From Cinnamomum chago (Eukaryota > Streptophyta > Magnoliopsida > Laurales > Lauraceae), in assembly GCA_038049695.1 (NCBI GenBank), contig CP142452.1:28818501-28882500 (forward strand): a stretch of 64,000 nt of DNA. The letters run 5' to 3'. Shown here piece by piece: positions 2,760 through 19,220 of this stretch; position 1 is the first letter of the stretch; each line of letters starts with the position of its first letter. The notes under the pieces were generated by a model. The model saw nothing but the letters and a program-made list of their open reading frames with translations. It did not search any database and was not told where the DNA came from. The translations under genes were made by a program, and so were the position numbers.

Positions 2760-5700
2760 TTGAGACAGTTGACACAAAGGCTGCAAAGTCGTCTTGCTGA
2801 CCAAGCCTCAACATCTCATATTAATGAAGACATCGATCTCCCCGGATATCTCTTTGAAGAGTCACCCATCGAAGATTTAGGAAGCTCACCCAATTGGTAT
2901 GATTTCTCGAATGATGAAGAGGAATTGACCGATGATACGGATACACGATTTTCTAGCCCAGAAGAACCATCATCTCCAAAAGAAGTGCCTTACTTCGACC
3001 TAGTTTCAACAGGTGATTGGGACCATCTCATAGCAAATCTTGAGAAAAGTACCAATCAAGAAGACCCATGGACAAAAGCAGAGCCGTGGTCTGTAGATAC
3101 CTTTGGAACTCCAGAAGGCTTTGTTGGGCTGGAAGCCTCCGAAAATATTGTGGAGGAACCACCTTCAAACCTTCCAACCGAAGATTTTGTTCAAAAGATA
3201 GACTTGGGAACACCTGATAACCCACGTCCTGTATTCATAAGCAAGAATATAAAGGATGATGAGTTACCCGAGTATATCGCGTTTTTTCATGAGTTTGTTG
3301 ATTGTTTTACATGGTCTTACGCTGAGATGCCTGGCTTAGACCCCAAAATAGCAGCCCACAAACTCAATCTTCAAAAAGATATCAAGCCTGTCAAACAAGG
3401 CCAAAGAAGGTTCCGTCCTGACGTGATGGACAAAATTGAACAAGAAGCTCAAAAACTCAAAAGCGTTGGCTTCATCCGTGAGGAACAGCATCCTGAATGG
3501 TTGGCCAACATCGTCCCCGTGACAAAGAAAAATGGGCAAATCAGGGTCTGCATTGATTACAGAGACCTAAACAATGCATGCCCAAAAGATGAATTCCCGC
3601 TCCCTATACCGGAGGTGATGATCGACAACACTTGTGGGTTCGAGCGAATGACATTCATGGATGGCTTCTCTAGCTACAATCAGATAAAGATGCATCCTGA
3701 AGATGAAAAACACACAGCATTTCGGACCCCGTTTGGCGTGTATTGCTACACTGTCATGCCATTCGGTCTGAAGAATGCCGGCGCTACATATCAGAGGGCT
3801 ATGATGAAGATATTCCAAGATATGCAGCACAAGACGGTCGAATGTTATGTCGATGACCTCGCCGTCAAAAGCAAAAGAAAAGAAGACCATCTCAAAGATC
3901 TTCGAGAAGTCTTCCTCCGACTTCGCAAACACAAACTGCGAATGAATCCCCTTAAATGCTTCTTCGGTGTTTCATCGGGTAAATTTCTCGGATTCATAGT
4001 ACGGAAAGCTGGCATAGAGCTTAACCCCACCAAAGTTAAGGCTATCCTAGAAATGCCATCTCCAAGAACCCTAAGACAATTAAAAGGGCTCCAAGGAAGA
4101 TTGGCATACATTCGACGGTTCATCTCCAACCTATCAGGGAAGTGCCGTTCATTCTCTCGGTTAATGAAGAAAGGTGTCGATTTTGTCTGGGATGCTGAAT
4201 GTGAAGCCGCGTTCCAGGACATCAAGTCATACCTGACTAAACCTCAAGTGTTGGCTGCCCCCACAACTGGAAAACCATTCCTCTTGTACACAAGAGCCCT
4301 TGACTGTTCTTTAGGCGCTCTACTCGCACAAAAGAATGACGAGGGAAAAGAAGCTGCTCTATATTACCTTAGCCGCATGTTGGTAGGTGCAGAGCATCGC
4401 TACTCTCCAGTCGAAAAAGAATGCTTGGCAGTGATGTTCGCGATACAAAAACTGCGTCACTACCTGCTAGCCAACACAGTGTACCTGATTTCGAGGATCA
4501 ACCTCCTAAAGGTCCTTGTCACAAAAGCAGGTTCTCTCAATGGCCGACTAGCAAAATGGTCCATCCTCCTGTCACAATTTGACATTAGGTATGTACCACA
4601 AAAAGCAATCAAAGGCCAAGCTCTAGCAGACTTCCTCGCGGAGCATCCATTGCCTAAAGATTCTCCACTCAGGGATGACCTCCCAGACGAACCGGTCTAC
4701 AGTGTGGAGACTTCCTTATCAAATGCTTCCTGGCACATGTACTTCGATGGCGCAACCAGGACAAATGAAAAGGGAAATCAAATATCGGGAATTGGCATTC
4801 TCTTTGTTAGTCCCGACAAATACATGATTCCACACGCATTCTCGCTACTGGAACCATGTTCAAACAATGCAGCTGAGTACCAAGCCCTGATCATAGGATT
4901 GGAACTCGCCCTCGAATCCGGCATCACTACGCTGGAAGCTTTTGGAGACTCTCAACTGATCGTCAACCAGATGAATCAGAAATTTGAAGTCAGGAAGCCC
5001 GATCTGTTGCCTTACTACAACAAGGCACAATCGCTTCGACAAAAGTTTGACATCTGTCACATCACCCACATCCTCAGAGGTGAAAACATTCGTGCAGATG
5101 CCCTGGCTGGACTTGCTGCGTCTATGGCAATCCAAGAAGGGGAAAACATGCAAGTTACAGTGTGTCAAAAAAGGATTCTCCCTCCTCTCAACACACATCA
5201 AGCAGTTGCTGAATGCCACCAAGTGGTTGGAAATCGGATCTCCGTCCTTAAACCTCTGATCGGCGACTGGAGGGATCCGTTCATTGATTACATAATGTTC
5301 GGAATCCTACCTGAAGATCCAAAAGAACGGGTAAGCATCCAAAGACGAGCCCCGAACTTTCATTTGGATATTCTTTCAAAAATGCTGTATAGAAAATCCT
5401 ACAATGGAGTACTTCTACGCTGCTTGTCACAACAAGAAGCTGAAGAAACACTCAAAGAAGTACATGCTGGTCTTTGTGGAGCCCATCAGGCTGGCCCTAA
5501 GCTCTACGATCAGATAAAAAGGTTAGGTTATTATTGGCCTACCATGGTGGCTGATGCAATGCAATTTGCTAAGCGCTGCCAACAATGCCAAATTCATGGA
5601 GACTATGTCCACATGCCTCCAGAATGGCTGCATCCTACAGCGATCTCATGGCCTTTTGAAGCCTGGGGTATGGACATCATAGGTCCTATCTCCCCTCCAT

Positions 5701-6524
5701 CGAGCAAAGGTCATCGCTTCATCTTCGCCGCTACGGATTATTTCTCCAAGTGGTCAGAAGCATTCTCGCTTAGTGAAATGAAGACCTCATCAGTCCTTCA
5801 GTTCTTGCGCACCAACATCATTTGTCGCTTCGGCATACCTAAAAGACTCGTCCATGATAACGGACCGCAATTCCGGGATCACAGATTCTACAGGTTCTGC
5901 GACAAATACAAAATCCAAAGTTGTCCTTCAACTTCGTACAATCCGGCAGCGAATGGACTAGCAGAGGCCTTCAACAAGACGCTCTGCAAAATCCTCAAGA
6001 AAATGGTCTCTAGTCACAAAAGAGATTGGGGCGACAAACTGCCTGAAGCTTTGTGGGCCTATCGAACCACCGTTCAAGGACCAACCCATAGCACACCATT
6101 CTCCTTGGTCTATGGATGCGAAGCTGTTGTCCCTTTGGAAGTTCAAATTCCTTCCTTAAGGGTATCTCTACAAAATGACATGACGCAAGAAAGCAATGTC
6201 AAATTGAGACTTCAAGAGCTGGATAATCTCGATGAGAGACGGCTCGAAGCTCTACAAAACATTGAACTCTACCAAGCACGCATGGCAGGATCTTTTGACA
6301 AGAAGGTCAGGCAACGCGCCTACAAAAAGGGAGACCGGGTTCTTACAGTAAGAAGACCTATGGTTTTTGCTCACAAATCCAAAGGCAAATTTGAACCAAA
6401 ATGGGAGGGACCTTTCGTCATCGACAAAATCTTCTCCAACGGCGCATACGCTCTTCTAAATATGGAGGGTGACAAGTGTATGCAGCCCATCAATGGAAAG
6501 TTCTTGAAGCGGTACTACCCTTGA
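2760..6524 (+). CDS. pol: Tat polyprotein: reverse transcriptase, RNase H, archaeal-type RNase H, integrase
   Basis: This is an uninterrupted frame of 1254 codons. The first codon taken here is TTG at 2760, so the natural product is probably joined to the upstream protease frame. Residues are counted from 2760. Reverse transcriptase spans about 200-450, with CIDYRDLNNACPKDEFPLP, MPFGLKNAGATYQR and the catalytic YVDDL near 363. A Gypsy RNase H follows around 510-600 (RALDCSLGALLAQ). A second, archaeal-type RNase H spans about 655-790 with acidic residues in YFDGATR, NAAEYQAL, GDSQLIV and RADALAG. Integrase has its zinc-binding part at about 902-945 (HAGLCGAHQAG, then CQQCQIHG), and the DDE core lies in GMDIIGP (~970), HDNGPQF (~1031) and NGLAEAFNK (~1065). 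I see no chromodomain. All catalytic motifs look intact, so the enzyme part could work if expressed. Confidence 0.95.
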   Translation: MRQLTQRLQSRLADQASTSHINEDIDLPGYLFEESPIEDLGSSPNWYDFSNDEEELTDDTDTRFSSPEEPSSPKEVPYFDLVSTGDWDHLIANLEKSTNQEDPWTKAEPWSVDTFGTPEGFVGLEASENIVEEPPSNLPTEDFVQKIDLGTPDNPRPVFISKNIKDDELPEYIAFFHEFVDCFTWSYAEMPGLDPKIAAHKLNLQKDIKPVKQGQRRFRPDVMDKIEQEAQKLKSVGFIREEQHPEWLANIVPVTKKNGQIRVCIDYRDLNNACPKDEFPLPIPEVMIDNTCGFERMTFMDGFSSYNQIKMHPEDEKHTAFRTPFGVYCYTVMPFGLKNAGATYQRAMMKIFQDMQHKTVECYVDDLAVKSKRKEDHLKDLREVFLRLRKHKLRMNPLKCFFGVSSGKFLGFIVRKAGIELNPTKVKAILEMPSPRTLRQLKGLQGRLAYIRRFISNLSGKCRSFSRLMKKGVDFVWDAECEAAFQDIKSYLTKPQVLAAPTTGKPFLLYTRALDCSLGALLAQKNDEGKEAALYYLSRMLVGAEHRYSPVEKECLAVMFAIQKLRHYLLANTVYLISRINLLKVLVTKAGSLNGRLAKWSILLSQFDIRYVPQKAIKGQALADFLAEHPLPKDSPLRDDLPDEPVYSVETSLSNASWHMYFDGATRTNEKGNQISGIGILFVSPDKYMIPHAFSLLEPCSNNAAEYQALIIGLELALESGITTLEAFGDSQLIVNQMNQKFEVRKPDLLPYYNKAQSLRQKFDICHITHILRGENIRADALAGLAASMAIQEGENMQVTVCQKRILPPLNTHQAVAECHQVVGNRISVLKPLIGDWRDPFIDYIMFGILPEDPKERVSIQRRAPNFHLDILSKMLYRKSYNGVLLRCLSQQEAEETLKEVHAGLCGAHQAGPKLYDQIKRLGYYWPTMVADAMQFAKRCQQCQIHGDYVHMPPEWLHPTAISWPFEAWGMDIIGPISPPSSKGHRFIFAATDYFSKWSEAFSLSEMKTSSVLQFLRTNIICRFGIPKRLVHDNGPQFRDHRFYRFCDKYKIQSCPSTSYNPAANGLAEAFNKTLCKILKKMVSSHKRDWGDKLPEALWAYRTTVQGPTHSTPFSLVYGCEAVVPLEVQIPSLRVSLQNDMTQESNVKLRLQELDNLDERRLEALQNIELYQARMAGSFDKKVRQRAYKKGDRVLTVRRPMVFAHKSKGKFEPKWEGPFVIDKIFSNGAYALLNMEGDKCMQPINGKFLKRYYP

Positions 6525-6894: not shown

Positions 6895-7300
6895 ACCGCA
6901 GGGAAGCGACGTTCAGTCGATACTTGCAAAACCCAAAATCGGAAGGATGCGACACCCATTCGATACTTCCAAAACCCCAAAATTTCAAAAATCGTGGAGA
7001 CGCAACGTTCCAGTTGATATCCACAACCCAAATTTCAAAACAAACAAAAAACAAAACAAAGGTTCGAAAAAACCTCAAAATTCAAAAATCGTGGGGAAGC
7101 GACATTCCATCGATACCCACAAAACAAAATTTTTGAAAAAAAAGCAGGGAAGCGACGCTTAGTCCATACTTGCACCCAAATCCGCGGGGAGGCGACATTC
7201 CATCGATACTCGCAACCGAATGAGCAAGGAAGCGACATTCCATCGATACTTGCAATACCATTCAGCAGGGAGGCGACTTTTAGTCGATACTTGCATTTTT
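6895..7300 (+). repeat. Tandem array A: ~50-60 bp units around GCGACATTCCATCGATACTTGCA
   Basis: About eight degenerate units are present. Each carries a form of GCGACATTCCATCGATAC or GCGACGTTCAGTCGATAC, followed by an A-rich spacer. Several cores can fold as a small hairpin, for example CGAC-TTTTA-GTCG near 7275-7287. Tandem arrays in this part of the element are known for Tat elements such as Retand. The array has no convincing coding potential. Confidence 0.8.
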
Positions 7301-7311
7301 GAAAACCGAAA

Positions 7312-7992
7312 ACCTGGCTTTCACGCCAAAAAACCCGGCTTCCATGCCAAAAATCCGGCTTCTACGCCAAAAAACCAAAAACCTGGCTTTCACGCCAAAA
7401 ACTCGGCTTTTATGCCAGAAATCAAAATTCGGCTTCCATGCCAACAAAACAAAACTCGGTTTTCAAAAAAAAAAATTTGGCTTTCATGCCAAAAACAAAA
7501 AATCTGGCTTTCATGCCAAAAAAAGAAATTTCGGCTTTCATGCCAAAAACAAAATTTGGTTCTTACACCAAAAACAAAACCGGCTCTCATGCCACAAACC
7601 AAATCTTGGCTCTCATGCCACAAAAAAATCGGCTTTCATGCCACCTCAAAAATCGGCTTTCATGCCACCTCAAAATTCGGCTTTCATGCCATCTCAAATT
7701 TTTGGCTCTCATGCCATCCCAAAATTTGGCTTTCACGCCACCAAAATCGGCTTTCATGCTACCTCAAAAGTTCGGCTTCCACGCCATCCAAAATTTTGGC
7801 TCTCATGCCATAAACCCAAAATCGGCTTTCATGCCACCTCAAAATTTCGGCTTCCAAGCCATCCAAAACTCTGGCTCTCATGCCATAAACCCAAATTTCG
7901 GCTTTCATGCCATCTCGAAATTCGGCTTTCAAACCACACAAAAAAAAAACCCTGGCTTTTGCCACAAAATCTGGCTTTCATGCCAAAACAAC
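7312..7992 (+). repeat. Tandem array B: ~28 copies of CGGCTTTCATGCCA
   Basis: A 13-14 bp core, (T/C)GGCTTTCATGCCA, recurs about 28 times with spacers of 6-20 bp rich in A and C. Most cores keep GGC and GCC arms around a TTTCAT loop, so each can form a mini-hairpin. All three forward frames read as repetitive peptides (GFHAK, LSCQK), which is a by-product of the repeat and not evidence for a protein. Confidence 0.9.
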
Positions 7993-8195: not shown

Positions 8196-9765
8196 TTAGT
8201 CTAGCATGGTCTTCAACCAAAGATCCAGCTCCTCAAGCAGACTCTTGGCCTTAGCCTCTAAAGCTTCCAGGCCGCGCTTCTTCAAGATCTTGCCATAAAA
8301 TACGACAGAACGCCGCGACCCATCTTCGGCACGAGGAAGCTCTTCCCAGAGAATTTGCCATTGCTCGTACTCCTGAGTCTTTCTCTGAAGGCTGCTACCG
8401 GCTTCTTCAACTTGGCGAATCAGAGTTCCCTCTTTAGCACGGGCTTCTACAATGGCAGTCCATTTGGCAGCACTTTGTTCTTGCAATTGCTCAAGGCGCT
8501 GCCTAGCTTCTGTGACCTCCCTATCAAGACGACGCAGGTCCTGTGTTAGCTCGATGATAGCCAACTCGGTAACGTTCCTCTCCCGAACGAATTGCTTCCG
8601 AGCCCGTGAGATCTCATCCATTTCAGATTTGATCTTACCGGATGGCTGCAAAAACATCTCATTGAAGAAGTCACCGCTTGGGAAATTCTTGGTCTCAGTC
8701 CATTTGTCGCCTAAAGCAATGACTTCATCAACAAAGGCCTTGGCACTTGCAACGTCCAGACCGACCTCTGCACTGTCAGCAAGGATGTCATGTACATGCT
8801 TGACCATGCCAAAACCAGCTTTCAAATGGCCAGAAGAGAGAGTTTCAACCCATGAGCTCAATACACTCTTCAACACCTTCTTTGCATATTGGAGGGATGG
8901 CCCAGATGAAGATTCACCACGATCTGTTGGCTGACTGCCCATGTCAGGTCGTGGTGGAGAAGAAATCAAAAGGCTCTTTCCAATCGGAGCCACTGAAGAA
9001 GCAATATCACCACAAAGTCCCGCCTCCGCCATGACGGGACTGGTAGAAGAAGCCCCTACTTCTGGATCGGCTGCTGGCATCTCTTGCTCTAGCCCTGAGG
9101 AAGACGAAGGAACTTCTCCTGTTGCTTCACAACCTGCTGGCAAAAACACAAGAAAAGGTATGAATATGATCTTGTCAAAAAAAAAAAGAAAAATCAATGT
9201 CAAGATTATCACTATGAAATACCTTCTTCCATGATGGGTGGAGTACTTTCTGTCTCCATTTGCTCATCTGAGGCATCGTCAAAAGCCATATCCATAGATG
9301 GCTCGAAGTCGGAACCCTCTGGCAAGTCAGCTGACAAAAAAAAAAAAAAAATGTCAGCAATCAAAAAAAAAAAAAAAATCTGGGCTGGCCCGCAGCCCAT
9401 GGCCCACAAGCCACGTGGCTATACGGCCCAGGCCGTACAGCAGCAAAAAAAAAAACAGAGAAAAAAAAAAAAGAAAGAAAACGTGCAAAAAAAAAAAGAG
9501 AGAAAAAAAAAGTACACGGTAAAAAAAAAAAAAGAAAAACCGTGAGCAAAAAAAAAAGAAAAAGAAAGAAAGGAAAAAAGGAAAAAAAAAAGAAAAAAAA
9601 AGAAGAGAAGAAAAAAAAAGCGTGTGAAAAAAAAGAAGGAAACACGTGAAGAAAAAAAAAAGAAAAAAAGAAAAAAAAAGAAAAGAAAAAAAAAAGGGAA
9701 AAGAAACTTTTTTCTACTTTTACATGCAATTTCTTGTTGAGAAAGAAAAACTCACTTGAAGCCAT
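8196..9765 (-). CDS. Antisense spliced gene inside the Tat element, 352-aa coiled-coil protein of unknown function
   Basis: This gene lies on the strand opposite gag-pol. Exon 1 is 9765-9756 (MAS plus one base) and ends at the donor GTGAGT. Intron 1 (9755-9331) is T-rich and ends in TTTTTGTCAG. Exon 2 is 9330-9223 and ends at the donor GTATTT. Intron 2 (9222-9137) ends in TTTTTGCCAG. Exon 3 runs from 9136 to the TAA at 8198-8196. The exon lengths (10, 108 and 941 nt) join in phase to give 352 codons and a stop, without a break. The second acceptor is a NAGNAG, so a 351-aa form is possible. Residues 1-120 are acidic and Ser/Pro-rich, 120-200 look helical, and about 210-299 form a Glu/Gln/Arg-rich coiled coil. 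I see no catalytic motif or membrane segment. Antisense ORFs after pol are known in Tat elements (Grande, RIRE2), but I do not recognise this protein. Confidence 0.78.
9137..9222 (-). other. Intron 2 of the antisense gene
   Basis: An 86-nt intron with donor AG|GTATTT and a T-rich tract before TTTTTGCCAG|CAG. Reading without splicing inserts a hydrophobic Phe/Leu/Ile stretch, while splicing joins MEE directly to AGCEATGEV. The intron is phase 1. Confidence 0.75.
9331..9755 (-). other. Intron 1 of the antisense gene, oligo-T rich
   Basis: A 425-nt intron, almost entirely T runs broken by C and G on the minus strand (A runs on the plus strand). It runs from GTGAGT to TTTTTGTCAG. A GC-rich island at about 9380-9445 contains GGCCCA/TGGGCC motifs. 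The oligo-T tracts could be a long polypyrimidine tract, or could have expanded by slippage. Either strand yields long Phe- or Lys-rich open frames that I treat as artefacts. Confidence 0.65.
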
Positions 9766-9876
9766 GGAGAAGAAGAAGAAGAACTTGAAGGTCTTTGAAG
9801 AAGAGGAGATCTTGGAGCTCTCTTGAAGACTTTTGCAAAAAGAAAGCAATAGGAGCAAGAGATCCCACCTCCCTTG

Positions 9877-9884
9877 CTTTTATA
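9877..9884 (-). promoter_or_regulatory. TATA box of the antisense gene (TATAAAAG)
   Basis: The minus strand reads CTCTTCTATAAAAGCAAGGG. The box lies 112 nt upstream of the proposed ATG at 9765, so a start site about 30 nt downstream would leave a leader of some 85 nt, rich in CTTCTT pyrimidine repeats. This is the spacing of an ordinary plant RNA polymerase II gene, and it is separate from the LTR promoter. Confidence 0.65.
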
Positions 9885-10838: not shown

Positions 10839-10849
10839 GAGGGGGCATT
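10839..10849 (+). promoter_or_regulatory. Polypurine tract of the Tat element
   Basis: GAGGGGGCATT lies immediately before TGTTGACACC, the expected place for the plus-strand primer in Ty3/Gypsy replication. It fixes the left edge of the 3' LTR at 10850. Confidence 0.75.
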
Positions 10850-11009
10850 TGTTGACACCAAAAATGTCACTTTGCCTCTTCATAGCAAAAGCTACATTGA
10901 GCCGCATCCTACCAAAAATAGGCAGGCGCCACTTCAAGCATCAGATCTTGTCAGAATCAAACAGAAACTGCAAGGTCATTCAAAACAACCAAAAGAGAGG
11001 TACACATGA

Positions 11010-11990
11010 AGTTTCGGGCCATTCCGACATCATTTGGCCTAGCTTCACTTCTCCAACAGCTAAGCAGCAGCCCCCGGAGGCGACAGTGTCGAAGACCCCA
11101 AATCTTCGATTAGAGCCTACGGATGATCTCAAAATACCTCCAAAAGGCTACATGTCAAGTTTCAAGTCAAACCGACACCGTTTGACCCTCCGTCAACTCT
11201 CGAGCAGCAAAATCAAGCCCTTAGATAGCGAGAACTACCGAGATCGTCACTCATCAAACAGAGCACATGGGCGGCTTCTACATACCTCCAAAGGGCTGCA
11301 CAACAAATTTAAGGTCAATCGGACATCATTTGACAAGAAGTCAAAGCTTGGCATTTCCCTCGCAGTGAAATAAAGGCGAGCATTTGCATGACTCCAAATG
11401 GCTACAAAACTCAAACGAAAGCCTATGGTTGGTCTTATCTACTAATGAGGGAGTCACACGTCAAATTTCAGGTCAATCGGACATCGTTTGACCAAAAATC
11501 AAAGCTCGGCATTTCCCTCGCAGTGAAATCAAAGTCAAGCGTTTGCATGACCCCAAACAGCTTCAAATCTCAAACTAAAGCTTATGGTTGGTCATATCTA
11601 CTGATGAGGGAGTCACACGTCAAATTTCAAGTCAATCGGACATCGTTTGACAGAAAGTCAAAGCTCGGCATTTCCCTCGCGGTGAAATAAAGGCAAGCGT
11701 TTGCATGACTCCAAATGGCTTCAAAACTCAAACAAAAGCCTATGGTTGGTCTTATCTACTGATGAGGGAGTCACACGTCAAATTTCAGGTCAATCGGACA
11801 TCATTTGACCAAAAGTCAAAGCTCGGCATTTCCCTCGTGGTGAAATCAAGTCAAGCATTTGCGGGCCCCCAAACGGCTTCAAAACCTGAACAAAAGCCTA
11901 TGGTTGGTCTCGTCTACTGCTCAAGAAGCTACACGTCGAATTTCAGGTCATTCCGACATCGTTTGACCTAGTTTCGACGCTTGACAAAAA
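11010..11990 (+). repeat. ~158-bp tandem array in U3
   Basis: The segment GGTCAATCGGACATCGTTTG starts at 11313, 11471, 11631, 11788 and, in a diverged form, 11946, giving spacings of 157-160 bp. Two older copies lie near 11017 and 11165. The units contain GGCATTTCCCTCGCAGTGAAAT. U3 repeats of this kind usually carry enhancer function. Confidence 0.88.
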
Positions 11991-12187
11991 ATCAGCAGTT
12001 CTCCACAGCAAAGTCTTCGGCTTTTTAGAAAATGGGAAACTTTGAGATCCGATTTGCACGGCTTCTCGTCAGGTTTTCTTGAGGGAAATCCAGCCAATAA
12101 ATGAGAGGAAGTTCCAAGAAAAATGCAGGAGAAAACAGAAGCGAAAACGGATGAAAAACGGCGAAGAAAAGGCGACCGAAAGACGGT

Positions 12188-12263
12188 CGACCATGGGGCA
12201 CAAACCCCATGGTCGCCGGCCCCATGGTCGCCGGCGACCATGGAGGTCCGGGCCGCCGGACCT
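12188..12263. repeat. Three consecutive GC-rich hairpins in U3
   Basis: Hairpin 1 pairs CGACCATGGGG (12188-12198) with CCCCATGGTCG (12205-12215). Hairpin 2 is a perfect 22-bp palindrome (12222-12243) with half-site CCATGGTCGCC. Hairpin 3 pairs AGGTCCGG (12244-12251) with CCGGACCT (12256-12263). All three are exact in their stems. Confidence 0.9.
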
Positions 12264-12947
12264 CGCCCAAAAACCCTGTTTTTCAGGTACTTTTCGCGTT
12301 TCAAGTTGATTGGGCCCTGTGATTTTTCCAAAATCTGATTTTTTGTGCATGATATCCGTCGATCTTCATCAACATCACGGATCCATCACTGGAATCATTA
12401 GATCATCATCGGACGCCTCAAGATCGTCAAACGGCTGACCAAGAAAGCACACTTTCTGCCCGCCCGATCGCGAAATCGACTGGACAGATGTTGCTGGCCC
12501 GCTGACATCAACCAATGTTTGAAATTGGATCACCATCCGACATCAAATAGCATGTGGGTCCATTGGTGATCATCGCAAGAAGAATCCCAAAGGACGCGGC
12601 ACGGCCCGCGACTCTTCAAGCGCCCGGGCAATCAATTAATGAAGTTAAATGACCCGTTTATGGCAAGTTAATGTGGTCATTAACCCATTATCTTGGACGT
12701 CCCAATCAGAAGCCTCCGTTTAGGAGTTACAAGTCCAAGCAATCATGGCATTCAAGCCATGAAACTCCTAACATAATGGAGATTAAAGGCAACTAAATGC
12801 CCATGACTCTCCTTTGGCCAATGAAATCCAAGGGTCAGGAGTTACAAAACAAAAAGCAATTAAACCTGTAACTCCTCCCATAACTTGGCTTTATTGCCAT
12901 AATTGCCATAAATGACCATAAACCACTCCTAAAGGCCACCAAAAGCC

Positions 12948-12955
12948 TATAAATA
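12948..12955 (+). promoter_or_regulatory. LTR TATA box (TATAAATA)
   Basis: CCTATAAATAGGAGTCCCC fits a plant core promoter. Transcription of the element would start about 30 bp downstream, near 12980, which separates U3 from R. Confidence 0.75.
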
Positions 12956-13156
12956 GGAGTCCCCTCCAAGCATTCCAGGCATCAGAATCATCAGAAGGAT
13001 CAGAAGCATCAGAAGCATCGAAATCATCAGCAATTCCTGCTCTAGAGATCCAGAGAAATCGCCAGAAAATCATTCAAAAATCCTCGGAGAAATCTCTACA
13101 ACTCTGCTCCTTCAAGAAAACTCTACTGCAACAAGCACAACAAGGTGATCAAAGTT

Positions 13157-13185
13157 CCTTGGGGGGGCCACCCCCCCCCCCAAGG
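13157..13185. repeat. C/G hairpin in the LTR leader
   Basis: CCTTGGGGGGG (13157-13167) pairs with CCCCCCCAAGG (13175-13185). It lies about 200 bp after the TATA box and so would be in the transcript leader. Confidence 0.85.
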
Positions 13186-13510
13186 CCACCTCTCCTTCTA
13201 TCCAACATGGCTAGATGCGGTTTTTCAGCCCGTCTACTCAGTTTTTTACCGGATATAGGACCTTACCTTGGTCCTTATCCTCTAAAAATCTAAGGTTGGA
13301 GCCAAGCCAAGAAATCAAGCATCAAAGTTCTCATCTGAAGGACGATGGCGGAGTCCATACATGACTCGCGACCGTCGATCTGAACGGGTCCCCCACAATC
13401 GCATGAGAAGTTAGATTCCATTTCTTTCTTTTCTATTGTATTGTATTTTTTCTTAAAGAGACACAAAATTCGCATTTCTTGTCTTTTCATTATTAATGAG
13501 ATTTGTAAAC

Positions 13511-13615
13511 CGCCTTTCACGGCAAAATCGCCTTTCACGGCACCAAAATCGCCTTTTACGGCAAACAAAGAAAATCGCCTTTCACGGCAAACAAAGAAAA
13601 TCGCCTCTCACGGCA
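13511..13615 (+). repeat. Five copies of TCGCCTTTCACGGCA in U5
   Basis: Cores of 14-15 bp with GCC/GGC arms around TTTCAC are spaced by CAAACAAAGAAAA-type linkers. The pattern is close to array B at 7312-7992, with the two arms exchanged. Confidence 0.85.
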
Positions 13616-13861
13616 TTCAAAACAAACTTGTCTCTTTTCTTTAAAATATGTGTGCAATGGAAAGTTAGGAAAAAGTTTGATTTCCTTTCTACTTGTGAAG
13701 GTGAATCTCCGGATCACTACTCTAAATTCCAAGTAGAAAAGAAAATCTGGCATACCCACAAAAATGTTGATACCCGCCTTTCTTTCTTCCCTCTCCCTCC
13801 TTCCGGACCCCGACAGACCCGGGCGGATGGCAGCGGAGGAGGAACGGAGGGGCGCGGTCCA

Positions 13862-14273
13862 TCATATATGTATCCTCATACCCCACTAATGGTAGGGCAT
13901 CTTCAGCTAAATGATCACAAATTTCCTCTTGATCATCGTCCTCCGATTCCTGCGATTTTGATACAAATACATCAACTGTCCCCAATCCCATTGAAGAAGC
14001 CAGCATGGACAAGCTCATTAGATTTGAATCGCTGTCCAGCAAGCACTTTGGGTGGCCAGGCAACGCATAAGTAAAACAAACCATGTTCATTGTAAGATTT
14101 CTCCACTTGCTACAAACTTGACGCATCAAACCATCATAGCTCATACCCCGACTCAAATGAATAACAGCCGTAAGCATGCCATACTTACAGAGAAGCAATA
14201 ACGGCTGTGACATCTGTAAAACAACAAGATTCAATGGATATAAATGGCCAGTATCATTGCCCAAATTGTACAT
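13862..14273 (-). pseudogene. MULE (MuDR-like) transposase, N-terminal fragment
   Basis: On the minus strand the translation contains LLLLCKYGM, then YDGLMRQVCSKWR, FTYALPGHPKCLLDSDSNL and SMLASSMGLGTVDVFV. These match the order of conserved motifs at the N terminus of plant Mutator-like transposases, a PB1-like region before the catalytic core. An acidic linker (SEDDDQEE) follows, and the frame then meets the retrotransposon LTR. The MURA catalytic domain, zinc knuckle and SWIM domain are missing. The Tat element appears to have cut the gene about 130 codons in, leaving only the promoter-side end of the transposon (13862-15590). Confidence 0.8.
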
Positions 14274-15923: not shown

Positions 15924-16685
15924 TCAACTGCTCCATAACATTACTATTTCAACATTGGAGATATGAGATGGAATCAATCTGTCTCTACTCAACTTCTTGC
16001 TAAACCGAACCGTTGCAAGTTGAAGGCCCACATAGGTAACATGATACTTCTGAAGTACAGCAGCTATACTCCTTACTTGAAAACGCACAGTCCATGGAGA
16101 TTTATGAGGAAACCGTGACAATTGAGCTAATGAAGGTTCCATTTCAAGTAAAATGCATGACAAATGAGCTGGAATGAGAGTCACTAGATGAAGAAGTCCC
16201 TTATATAGATCCATAGCTGGTTGCACCGCCCCTACAAGTGGCTGGTCACTATCTTCCCATATGATACCAATACTCGTATGAGGAGTAGTGTATAGAGAGA
16301 GTCTCCAGCCGTGATAAGCAATAGGAATGAGATGTGCAAGTGTGGAAGAAGAGGGAGGAAGGTTCCAATGCCATGAAACACTATCCGGAAGAGATATGCC
16401 AAGGTACAACAGCCTACTTTGAAGAGTCTGAATGATACAATGAAGTACTGCAGAAGCTGGTTGGAATTGATCTCTGAAGATGCGCCTATTTCTTTCAGCC
16501 CATATGTGCCAAACATAAGCACAAAAAATTAATTTAGCCACTGTTTGGAGCCCTTTATGATGCTGATCAACACGTAATAGGATTGAGTCCAACAACTCTA
16601 AAGGTGAATCACATGAAATATAATTCAAGTTTAGAGTAGCTAGTAATGAAGTCCAAATTGTTTGAGAATAGGAACACTGAAGCAT
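15924..16685 (-). pseudogene. LINE C-terminal region, RNase H-like tail
   Basis: It continues from zf-RVT with YVWHIWAERNRRIFRDQ, a common plant LINE segment. A divergent tail follows (SIGIIWEDSDQPLVGAVQ ... GLQLATVRF) in the place where an RNase H domain is usual. The acidic catalytic set is not obvious, so I call it only RNase H-like. The stop at 15924 lies about 165 nt before the poly(A) tail. Confidence 0.65.
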
Positions 16686-16703
16686 AAGATGCCACCCAGA
16701 TTC

Positions 16704-17285
16704 CTAGGTACAATCACAAAACATACAGCAAGAGTCACAATCCACATTTCTTTGGAGCAGAAAATCCTTTGTCTTCAACTTTCCTCTGAAAAACATCCAT
16801 GCACAGATGGAGTGTTTTTTAATACAGCCCGAAAACCATATTAAGGGAGGCCAACGTAAATTATGATCATGGCTGAAAGTTAGCATCCTGTAGGCAGATT
16901 TGAAAGTAAAGGAACCGTCCTCTTCCAATGTCCATACAAGCTCATCATCAAAATCATAACAAGGTCGGACTTCTAATGGAATCTCATGAAAAACATCCAT
17001 AAGAGCATTAGATGTAGGAGGTGGAAACAACCACTCATGATCAACAATAAAAGAATGCCACCTGATGTCACACCCAAAACCAAGATCATAAATTGCTCTT
17101 GCACCATATCTATCTTTTAACCTTCCTCCATTTAACCATGGATCAATCCAGAATTTAATCAGATGCCCATTCCCAACAAGGAGTTTTATGTGGGGAAGCA
17201 TTAGCATTCGAAGGCCAAGAATTCCTTTCCATCCTGACGAGGCATGTTTTGGCACGGGCACATCCCATATAGAAACACTGTTCAA
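16704..17285 (-). pseudogene. LINE zf-RVT zinc-binding region
   Basis: The frame reads LLVGNGHLIKFWIDPWLNG, then FTFKSAYRML, IWFSGCIKKHSICAWMFFRGKL and CDSCCMFC. This is the conserved segment after RT in plant L1 elements, with Cys residues at its end. It is separated from RT by about 400 nt of broken frame and from the downstream piece by a stop at about 16704. Confidence 0.82.
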
Positions 17286-17689
17286 ATAGCATTAATCCAT
17301 AGATTCCAACAAGTGAGCTTGTTTTGGAGCACATTCCACAATTGTCTCATCAAAGCCGCCCTAACAGTCCCTGCAAAGGATCGGATACCCAAACCTCCAG
17401 AAGAGATAGGCTGACAAATAGAGTCCCAAGCAATAGGATGAAGATAATGAGATGACCAATTGTTCCAAAAGAAATCTCTGACCTGTCTATCAATGGCATT
17501 AAGTATAGTTGTAGGGAGAAGAAAGACTGCAGCCCAATAGAGATGAATTGTAGATAAAGTAGATCAAATTAGTTCCACTTGGCCTGCATATGATAAAGCC
17601 TTAGATTTCCACCCAGCCAAACGCTTTTGAATTTTGCCAAGAAGAGCTTGACAATCAGTAAAAGTCAGTCTCTTTGAAGATAATGGAAC

Positions 17690-19220
17690 ACCCAGCTATT
17701 TAACAGGAAATCTGCCTCTTTGAACAATAAGAATATCAGAAATAATGTGCTGAATCGGAATAGAGCAATTAGCAAAATAGACTGCACTTTTCCCCCAATT
17801 AACTCCCAAACCTGAAAATTGCTTAAACTTTTCCAGGAAGTGTCTTAGGTTAACAGCAACAACATCAGTAGCTTTGCAGAAAACAAATAAATCATCAGCA
17901 AACATAAGATGAGAGATAGCCACTTGACCCTTTTGAAAAGGAGTCGGGATCAGATTTGATGAGGCATAGTGAGACATCAAAGTAGAGGAAAATTCCATCA
18001 CAATGGCAAAAAGGAACGGAGATAATGGACAACCCTACCGTAATCCTCTTGTACCTTTAAGGTAACCTTCAGAACTGCCATTCACCAAAACTGATTAATG
18101 AACATCAGTAACACATGCCATGATGAGGTTAATGAAGTGAGCTGGAAAGCACAAGCATTTGAGTGCTGCCTCAAGGAAGTTCAATCGAACACTATCATAA
18201 GCTTTAGCAAGATCAATTTTGATACACATACGAGAAGGCCCACTCGATAAATGAAAGTTATGAATCAAATCTTGTGCCAGAAGGATATCATCAGCAATGC
18301 TTCTCCCAGGAATGAAAGCTGATTGCATTGGGCTCAAAAGTTTTCCAATAATCGGCTTTAGTCGATGCACCAGGAGACGACTAATTATTTTATAAAGCTC
18401 ATTTGTCAAGGATATGGGCTTGAACTGATCCGGGGAATTAGTATTCTCCCTCTTTGGAACAAGCACTATAAAAGTGGATTTTACCTGATTAAGCAGCTTG
18501 CCATGCTTAAAAAAAATCAGTAATGGCTTCACAAACATCATTCCCAATGATTGGCCAAAAATCTTTGAAAAATGAGCATTAAAGCCATCTGGCCCAGGAG
18601 CCTTGTTTGGATTTGCAGCTTTTATTATCTCCTCAATTTCTGATATTTGCACTGGCAAAGTGAGGCTCACAGCATCCTCCTTAGAAATATAAGCATATGG
18701 AGGAAGATAAGAAAGATCTGGCTGTTGCAAATCAATAGACGGCCCAAGAAGACCAGAAAAATAAGAAACAAAAGCCGCTGCAATACCTTGATGATCAGAA
18801 AGAGTGGTACCTTCCAAGTCAATTATTTGAGAGATGAATGAGTGAGCATGTCTCATTCGCATCAACCGATAAAAATATTTAGAGTTCCCATCACTGAGAT
18901 TCACAACAAGATCCCCGAGAGCGCTGCTTGTACATGCTTTCCTCTACTCGACATAAAGAATCAAGACGTAATCTGGCCAATCGTTCTTGAGCCTGAAAGG
19001 ATAAATTATTTGGATCCCGAGTCATGTTCTTTTGAATTTCATCTAGTAAAGTCCTGGCATCTTGAAGTTTTGTAGATATCGGAATTTGACTCTTTTTCCA
19101 TGCAATAATTCTCTCTTTAACTCTTTTCAGCTTTTTAACCACCCTAAACAAGGGTGTACCATTAACCTCTTCTGCCCAAGCTTGTTGGATAACTGTGCTG
19201 AAGATAACATCAGAAGGTAT
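17690..19220 (-). pseudogene. LINE reverse transcriptase (stops and frameshifts)
   Basis: The N-terminal part holds FRVVKKLKRVKERIIAWKK. RT motifs follow in order: ANPNKAPGPDGFNAHF, FKPISLTNELYKIISRLL, QSAFIPGRSIADDILLAQ, IDLAKAYDSVRLNFLE and the catalytic FADD in HLMFADDLFVF. A frame change lies near 18904. A TAA near 18094 replaces a codon in VTDVH-SVLVNG, and a TAG at 18035-18037 replaces the Gln of the usual GLRQGCPLSP motif. These are L1-clade motifs of plants. The gene is dead but still easy to read. Confidence 0.88.

What the first reader, a model, noticed from the sequence alone, without database searches (positions are those of the whole stretch)
8196..9884. Spliced antisense gene with its own TATA box inside a Tat retrotransposon
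On the strand opposite gag-pol, TATAAAAG, an ATG, two canonical GT-AG introns and three exons join in perfect phase to a 352-codon frame. Without splicing the frame reads through Phe-rich nonsense; with splicing it is clean. The gag/protease region of the same copy has two stops and two frameshifts, yet this frame is open. Antisense ORFs are known in some Tat elements, but a three-exon gene with a 10-nt first coding exon, an 85-nt leader and a coiled-coil product is not one I recognise. It could regulate the element (antisense RNA, or a protein acting on Gag or chromatin).
Basis: partly seen in the sequence, partly recalled or inferred. Interest (0 to 1): 0.88.

Follow-up and report, generated by a model that had tools for sequence, protein, structure and literature searches.

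The report
Shortened antisense gene in plant retrotransposon

Summary
The reading as an unrecognised three-exon gene is only partly right. In other copies in the same genome the first intron holds two more exons, 2,484 nt encoding a plant mobile domain (PMD, PF10536) with a basic linker, and 114 nt. The window's exons are e1, e4 and e5 of this five-exon gene; avocado gene models use the same junctions. PMD extra ORFs of Ogre/Tat elements are a known kind. Shared variants in e2 sit mostly at third codon positions (27/21/95), singletons do not (96/101/111): the full gene was under purifying selection in the transposing lineage.

Of 40 copies examined, 16 lack e2 and e3, 2 lack e2, 2 lack part of e2, 2 lack e3. 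Displayed e2-loss junctions differ and mostly lie in T-runs; short copies are scattered on the tree; introns are phase 1, so loss keeps the frame. The likely cause is reverse-transcriptase jumping between A-tracts of the genomic RNA. I found no evidence that the short form has its own function, and no RNA evidence was available.

The parts
9877..9884 (-). TATA box (TATAAAAG) of the antisense gene
   Evidence: identical in 24 of 24 copies covering it
9756..9765 (-). coding exon 1 (10 nt, e1 of the five-exon gene), after a leader of about 85 nt if transcription starts about 30 nt past the TATA box (start site inferred)
   Evidence: one avocado gene model (P0058) starts MTSSSSSRTNKG, consistent with e1 joined to e2
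9331..9755 (-). intron 1, T-rich (A-rich tract 9445-9706 on the sense strand); in long copies e2 (PMD, 2,484 nt) and e3 (114 nt) lie inside this interval; deletion junction in or near the T-run after CAGCCCAGA (about 9363-9378)
9223..9330 (-). exon 2 of the finding = e4 of the full gene (108 nt, phase 1 on both sides)
9134..9222 (-). intron 2 with tandem CAGCAG acceptor (exon 3 from 9136 or 9133)
8196..9133 (-). exon 3 of the finding = e5 of the full gene: disordered stretch, helices and a long helix of about 110 residues (coiled coil by inference); stop TAA 8198-8196
2760..6524 (+). pol of the host element: RT, RNase H, second RNase H (RVT_3), integrase
7143..7946 (+). tandem repeats between pol and the antisense gene
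10839..10849 (+). polypurine-tract-like GAGGGGGCATT just before the 3' LTR
   Evidence: read directly; label recalled
10850..13864 (+). 3' LTR (TG...CA); its partner is at L048 932-3915, left of the window; 55 substitutions in 2,966 sites, 69 gap columns, K2P 0.0188

Best explanation
SHOWN by comparison: the window gene is a deletion form of a five-exon antisense accessory gene (e1 10 nt, e2 PMD plus basic linker 2,484 nt, e3 114 nt, e4 108 nt, e5 coiled coil) in an Ogre-like Tat element. e2 and e3 are missing here. The introns are phase 1 (computed in L033 and the window), so e1-e4-e5 stays in frame. SHOWN in the sampled copies: exon loss with many different junctions, mostly in T-runs, and a codon-position signal of purifying selection on the full gene while the elements transposed. 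INFERRED: the gene is transcribed from its own TATA promoter and spliced. Because it is antisense, its introns are not removed from the genomic RNA and so survive retrotransposition. In that RNA the T-rich introns are A-tracts, and reverse transcriptase jumps from one tract to another, dropping the exons between. INFERRED from the family: the full protein is a nuclear PMD factor acting in the element's favour against host silencing (Arabidopsis PMD proteins MAIN and MAIL1 act in silencing). The short protein lacks the PMD and is probably inert, or at most interferes with the full protein through the coiled coil.
For: In 16 sibling copies with both sides in view, about 3.2-3.4 kb more lies between the same leader/intron 1 and e4; it holds e2 and, except in L040 and L047, e3. 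PMD in 3 of 3 tested e2 frames, 62.3, 55.2 and 34.9 bits at a cut-off of 34.9. Phase 1 after e1, e2, e3 and e4 in L033. Of 74 proteins returned, 23 joined e4|e5, 19 e3|e4 and 2 e3|e5. Exon inventory of 40 copies: 16 without e2 and e3, 2 without e2, 2 with partial e2, 2 without e3, 15 with both complete, 3 with e2 only partly seen. Of 20 copies that lost all or part of e2, 18 junctions were displayed: 16 lie in a run of at least 11 T; 13 contexts by eye. Short copies are not clustered on the tree: 14 changes against a shuffled mean of 13.0, at least 4 forced by supported branches. 16 short and 20 long copies have alike end branches, means 0.0111 and 0.0105, p 0.89. Selection: e2 shared variants 27/21/95 by codon position, singletons 96/101/111 (17 copies).
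Against: No RNA data were available; matches from ENA and Logan look like unspliced DNA. The 40 copies are the best-scoring of 3,778 candidates for a short-form query, so the proportion of short copies is not a genome-wide figure. Few tree branches are well supported (3 of 37 starred, bootstrap not settled), and the end-branch comparison is small. For e4+e5 the shared-variant skew is weaker: 13/11/26, p 0.019, and p 0.057 against singletons. Intron 2 is less diverged than the exons (1.31% against 4.26% and 2.82%). Of 17 sampled copies spanning e2, 16 carry at least one stop or frameshift in it relative to L033's frame, so most sampled long copies are themselves damaged. T-runs are present at these sites in long copies too, and their length changes fast, so junctions that look alike or different could mislead. 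9 of 16 short copies and 13 of 24 others lack a premature stop in e4-e5, so the data neither show nor exclude a role for the short form.
Confidence: 0.82

Rival explanations
1. The short three-exon form is a gene in its own right with a selected function, for example a PMD-less regulator, kept and amplified by the element.
For: Different deletions lead to the same predicted e1-e4-e5 exon set; 9 of 16 short copies, the window among them, have no premature stop in e4-e5.
Against: Short copies do not form a clade; they keep the frame no better than other copies (13 of 24, Fisher p 1.0); the codon-position signal is clearest on the PMD exon that they lack.
Confidence: 0.08
2. Same deletions, but made after insertion by recombination or repair between T-tracts in chromosomal DNA, not by reverse transcriptase.
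For: Junctions are largely private to single copies (12 of 13 displayed contexts occur in one copy each; copies of the shared type do not cluster).
Against: Short copies are not older than long ones by end-branch length (p 0.89; small sample), as steady post-insertion loss would predict.
Confidence: 0.25
3. The antisense transcript, not the protein, is what matters (dsRNA, siRNA or interference with the sense RNA).
For: Raised for antisense ORFs in the review PMC7264820.
Against: Codon-position bias in shared variants of e2 (27/21/95) and homologous proteins in avocado (33 of the 47 hits, 53-80% identity) point to selection on protein.
Confidence: 0.08
4. Polarity reversed: the short gene is ancestral and the PMD exons were inserted.
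For: None found beyond the existence of both forms.
Against: PMD plus coiled-coil gene models exist in avocado; short-form junctions vary while 15 long copies hold the same e2-e3-e4 order.
Confidence: 0.03

Closest known systems
PMD-encoding extra ORFs of Ogre elements (Tat clade, Ty3/gypsy); reported in 57% of Ogre elements, PMC6317226 section 13
   Same: PF10536 domain in sibling copies, second RNase H between RNase H and integrase, long LTRs, large element
   Different: Here the gene is antisense and interrupted by T-rich phase-1 introns, ends in a coiled coil, and the window copy has lost the PMD. The cited survey took ORFs of at least 250 codons from getorf (method passage), so it would not record introns. 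The orientation of its PMD ORFs was not stated in what I read.
PMD-A clades of Gypsy-encoded plant mobile domains (PMC5418596, passages)
   Same: Gypsy-borne PMD
   Different: Clade placement was not tested here; the window copy has no PMD
gene23 of maize Grande (Gomez-Orte 2013, known to me here only through PMC7264820 and a citation)
   Same: Antisense gene between pol and 3' LTR with its own promoter
   Different: No sequence comparison made; splicing of gene23 not stated in what I read
Retand-lineage antisense TRP28 (PF04195) ORFs (PMC11963269, parts 1-3 of 5)
   Same: Same position and orientation
   Different: No PF04195 match in the window protein, in 9 avocado homologs or in 3 e2 frames

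Membership tests
Tat clade, Ty3/gypsy | Second RNase H (aRH) in pol | tested here: met
   RT_RNaseH plus RVT_3 (72.6 bits, cut-off 21.6) at residues 668-784 of the pol frame
Tat clade, Ogre or Retand subclade | aRH lies between RNase H and integrase | tested here: met
   RT_RNaseH 504-607, RVT_3 668-784, rve 965-1062; criterion from PMC6317226
Ogre | PMD (PF10536) extra ORF | tested here: met
   Met in sibling long copies (3 of 3 frames); not met in the window copy itself
Ogre | Very large element with long LTRs (frequent, not defining) | tested here: met
   LTRs about 3.0 kb, element about 20.9 kb
Ogre | RT phylogeny and PBS type | not tested
   No lineage reference set was used; sequence after the 5' LTR was seen but not matched to a tRNA
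Ogre | Intron between gag-pro and pol frames | tested here: inconclusive
   Frame changes between 2715 and 2760; the gap is short and gag-pro also has stops
Retand | Antisense TRP28 (PF04195) | tested here: not met
   no match at the E-values listed there
Plant mobile domain proteins | PF10536 at the curated cut-off | tested here: not met
   Window product: no PMD; e2 of long copies does reach the cut-off
Antisense accessory gene with own promoter (gene23-like) | Antisense between pol and 3' LTR | tested here: met
Antisense accessory gene with own promoter (gene23-like) | Active promoter, nuclear product | not testable with these tools
   Only a conserved TATA box seen

The most novel reading that the evidence does not exclude
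The T-rich phase-1 introns act as a built-in exon-dropping device. Each round of reverse transcription can produce PMD-less copies that all encode the same short coiled-coil protein, which could act in trans as an interfering partner of the full PMD protein and so limit or parasitise the family.
Probability: 0.1. Interest if true: 0.78.

Novelty: new variant of a known kind. Interest (0 to 1): 0.5.

Why it matters
If right, it shows how a retrotransposon can keep a multi-intron gene: on the antisense strand, introns are invisible to splicing of the genomic RNA. It also shows a cost: homopolymer introns become deletion hot spots, yet equal intron phase keeps the remains in frame. Surveys that call plain ORFs in one copy would miss the full gene or mistake the remnant for a new one. 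The full PMD gene, with a signal of purifying selection in the lineage that transposed, gives a testable link between element-borne PMD proteins and the host silencing factors MAIN and MAIL1.

Tried and rejected
Rejected: TRP28 membership (no PF04195). Chance ORF (homologs and conserved TATA, start and splice sites). Loss by retro-copying of a spliced antisense RNA (parts of both flanking introns are still present). Zero exon indels taken as strong proof of selection: the 39 copies were ranked by match to these very exons, and e2, which was outside the query, does carry singleton indels. A first frame count on e2 by column occupancy mixed copies of different frame and was replaced. The structure model of the exon 3 product (pLDDT 77, pTM 0.35) had no PDB match at E 0.001 or better (0 of 47 listed). 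A third protein search aimed at the exon junctions (30 hits) gave full-span matches only from avocado gene models; its 4 ENA and Logan proteins covered at most 49% of the query. A genome-wide count of all e4 starts, needed for an unbiased short:long ratio, could not be obtained (tool busy); 90 exact places with the intact e3|e4 intron were counted. Whether the six copies of one junction type (WIN, L009, L010, L011, L019, L020) share it by descent was not settled: the rows do not cluster and their T-runs differ. The junctions of L026 and L028 (partial e2) were not displayed.

Literature limits: searches did not turn up a spliced five-exon antisense PMD gene or T-run exon loss in the listings and in the passages that I read. 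Steinbauerova 2011 and Gomez-Orte 2013 were seen only as citations, so priority cannot be excluded.

Full report
CHECK. On the minus strand: TATAAAAG at 9884-9877, ATG at 9765, a 10-nt coding exon, GT-AG introns 9755-9331 and 9222-9137 (or -9134), exons 9330-9223 and 9136 (or 9133)-8196, giving 352 or 351 codons. The element is a Ty3/gypsy Tat-type retrotransposon. Its pol frame carries RT, RNase H, a second RNase H and integrase in that order. Its 3' LTR lies at 10850-13864 and pairs with a 5' LTR left of the window; the pair differs at 55 of 2,966 sites (K2P 0.0188, 69 gap columns). The element is about 20.9 kb long. The flanking bases TATCT and TATAT would be a target duplication with one mismatch.

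WHAT IT IS. A search of the host genome (1.06 Gb, 14 contigs) with the gene gave 3,778 candidates, of which 40 were scored; I fetched the 39 other copies. All 40 hold the end of the gene, as the search requires. In 16 copies where both sides are in view, a further 3.2-3.4 kb lies between the T-rich first intron and exon 2; four more hold e2 but their leader was not in the fetched stretch or not found. That stretch encodes a protein with the plant mobile domain PF10536: 62.3, 55.2 and 34.9 bits in three copies against a cut-off of 34.9. In the long copy L033 the exons are e1 10 nt, e2 2,484 nt, e3 114 nt, e4 108 nt and e5; the three introns before e4 are 928, 97 and 59 nt, and after each of e1 to e4 the coding phase is 1. 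The window's exons 1, 2 and 3 are e1, e4 and e5.

INDEPENDENT SUPPORT. Protein searches returned 47 relatives of the short protein, 33 of them avocado (Persea americana) entries, and 29 of e2. Of the 74 proteins returned in all by the three searches, 23 have e4 joined to e5 at the window's second acceptor, 19 have e3 joined to e4, and 2 have e3 joined to e5, by text patterns; one begins MTSSSSSRTNKG, as e1 joined to e2 would. These are gene models, not transcripts. A third search aimed at the junctions gave full-span matches only in avocado models, and some ENA entries read through the intron as unspliced DNA does (P0005, P0021).

SELECTION. In 17 copies spanning e2, variants shared by three or more copies fall 27/21/95 on codon positions 1/2/3, and singletons 96/101/111 (p 4e-16 and 0.57). 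The full gene thus evolved as a protein in the transposing lineage and drifts after insertion: 16 of the 17 carry at least one stop or frameshift in e2. In e4+e5 of 40 rows the shared variants are 13/11/26 (p 0.019; p 0.057 against singletons) and the singletons 70/60/66. Exons e4 and e5 had 0 indels in 39 copies, against 38 occurrences in intron 2 (in its T-run) and 113 occurrences, 37 distinct, in 266 nt of 3' flank. Since copies were ranked by match to these exons, I give this little weight. Against a simple reading, intron 2 outside its T-run is less diverged (1.31%) than exon 2 (4.26%) and exon 3 (2.82%).

RECURRENT EXON LOSS. Of 40 copies including the window, 16 lack e2 and e3, 2 lack e2 only, 2 lack the 5' part of e2, 2 lack e3 only, 15 have complete e2 and e3, and in 3 e2 is only partly seen, in at least one because the fetched stretch ends. 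Of the 20 copies that lost all or part of e2, 18 junctions were displayed: 16 lie in a run of at least 11 T and two in shorter T/C tracts; by eye there are 13 different contexts, six copies sharing one type. Long copies also have T-runs there, so the 3' side alone means little; it is the match of T-rich tract to T-rich tract on both sides that counts. On a tree of e4-e5, short copies are scattered: 14 changes against a shuffled mean of 13.0 (as low in 414 of 500 shuffles) and at least 4 forced by supported branches, though only 3 of 37 inner branches are well supported and the bootstrap had not settled. End branches of 16 short and 20 long copies are alike (means 0.0111 and 0.0105, p 0.89). 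Steady decay after insertion would make short copies older. Loss during reverse transcription fits better, because in the sense RNA these introns are A-tracts between which the enzyme can slip. This step is inferred.

FUNCTION. From published work, PMD proteins MAIN and MAIL1 act in silencing in Arabidopsis, and PMD-A clades are encoded by Gypsy elements (passages of PMC5418596 and PMC7156037). An anti-silencing role of captured PMDs was suggested for MULE elements. I infer a similar nuclear role for the full antisense protein. The window's product keeps an N-terminus without predicted structure in the modelled part and a long helix but no PMD. Short copies keep their frame no better than others (9 of 16 against 13 of 24 without a premature stop in e4-e5). 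I therefore read the window gene as a remnant, possibly expressed, without shown function.

KNOWN OR NEW. Antisense extra ORFs, in Grande with their own promoter, are known (PMC7264820, parts 1-2 of 3 read; PMC11963269, parts 1-3 of 5 read). PMD extra ORFs occur in 57% of Ogre elements (PMC6317226, section 13 and passages), and PMD was the commonest extra domain in a survey of plant Gypsy elements (PMC9289625, passages). The five-exon antisense structure and the repeated in-frame loss of exons at T-rich phase-1 introns were not found in searches. Two key papers could not be read, so I call it a new variant of a known kind.

Noticed in passing
P0023, P0024, P0049: Proteins of this plant element are deposited under Streptomyces clavifer and Yersinia pestis; this looks like plant contamination of bacterial assemblies, not transfer (inferred).
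   Followed up: no
window 9134-9139: Tandem acceptor CAGCAG in intron 2; both choices are in frame. 37 of the 40 rows keep CAGCAG (L010, L019 and L021 differ); avocado models fit the second acceptor.
   Followed up: partly
window 11304-11968: About four copies of a 158-bp tandem repeat inside the 3' LTR, also present in the 5' LTR.
   Followed up: no
window 15924-18904, minus strand: Fragmented frames that look like a LINE reverse transcriptase (recognised from memory; not tested).
   Followed up: no
window 13722-14273, minus strand: A 183-aa frame crosses the 3' LTR end; the host side may be a MULE-like transposase fragment into which the element inserted (recalled, untested).
   Followed up: no
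own genome, 90 places: 90 exact matches of the intact e3|e4 intron, a lower bound for copies that keep it.
   Followed up: partly
L040 and L047: Both lack only e3; the junction lies in a T-rich tract between the second and third introns: a different exon lost in a similar way.
   Followed up: partly
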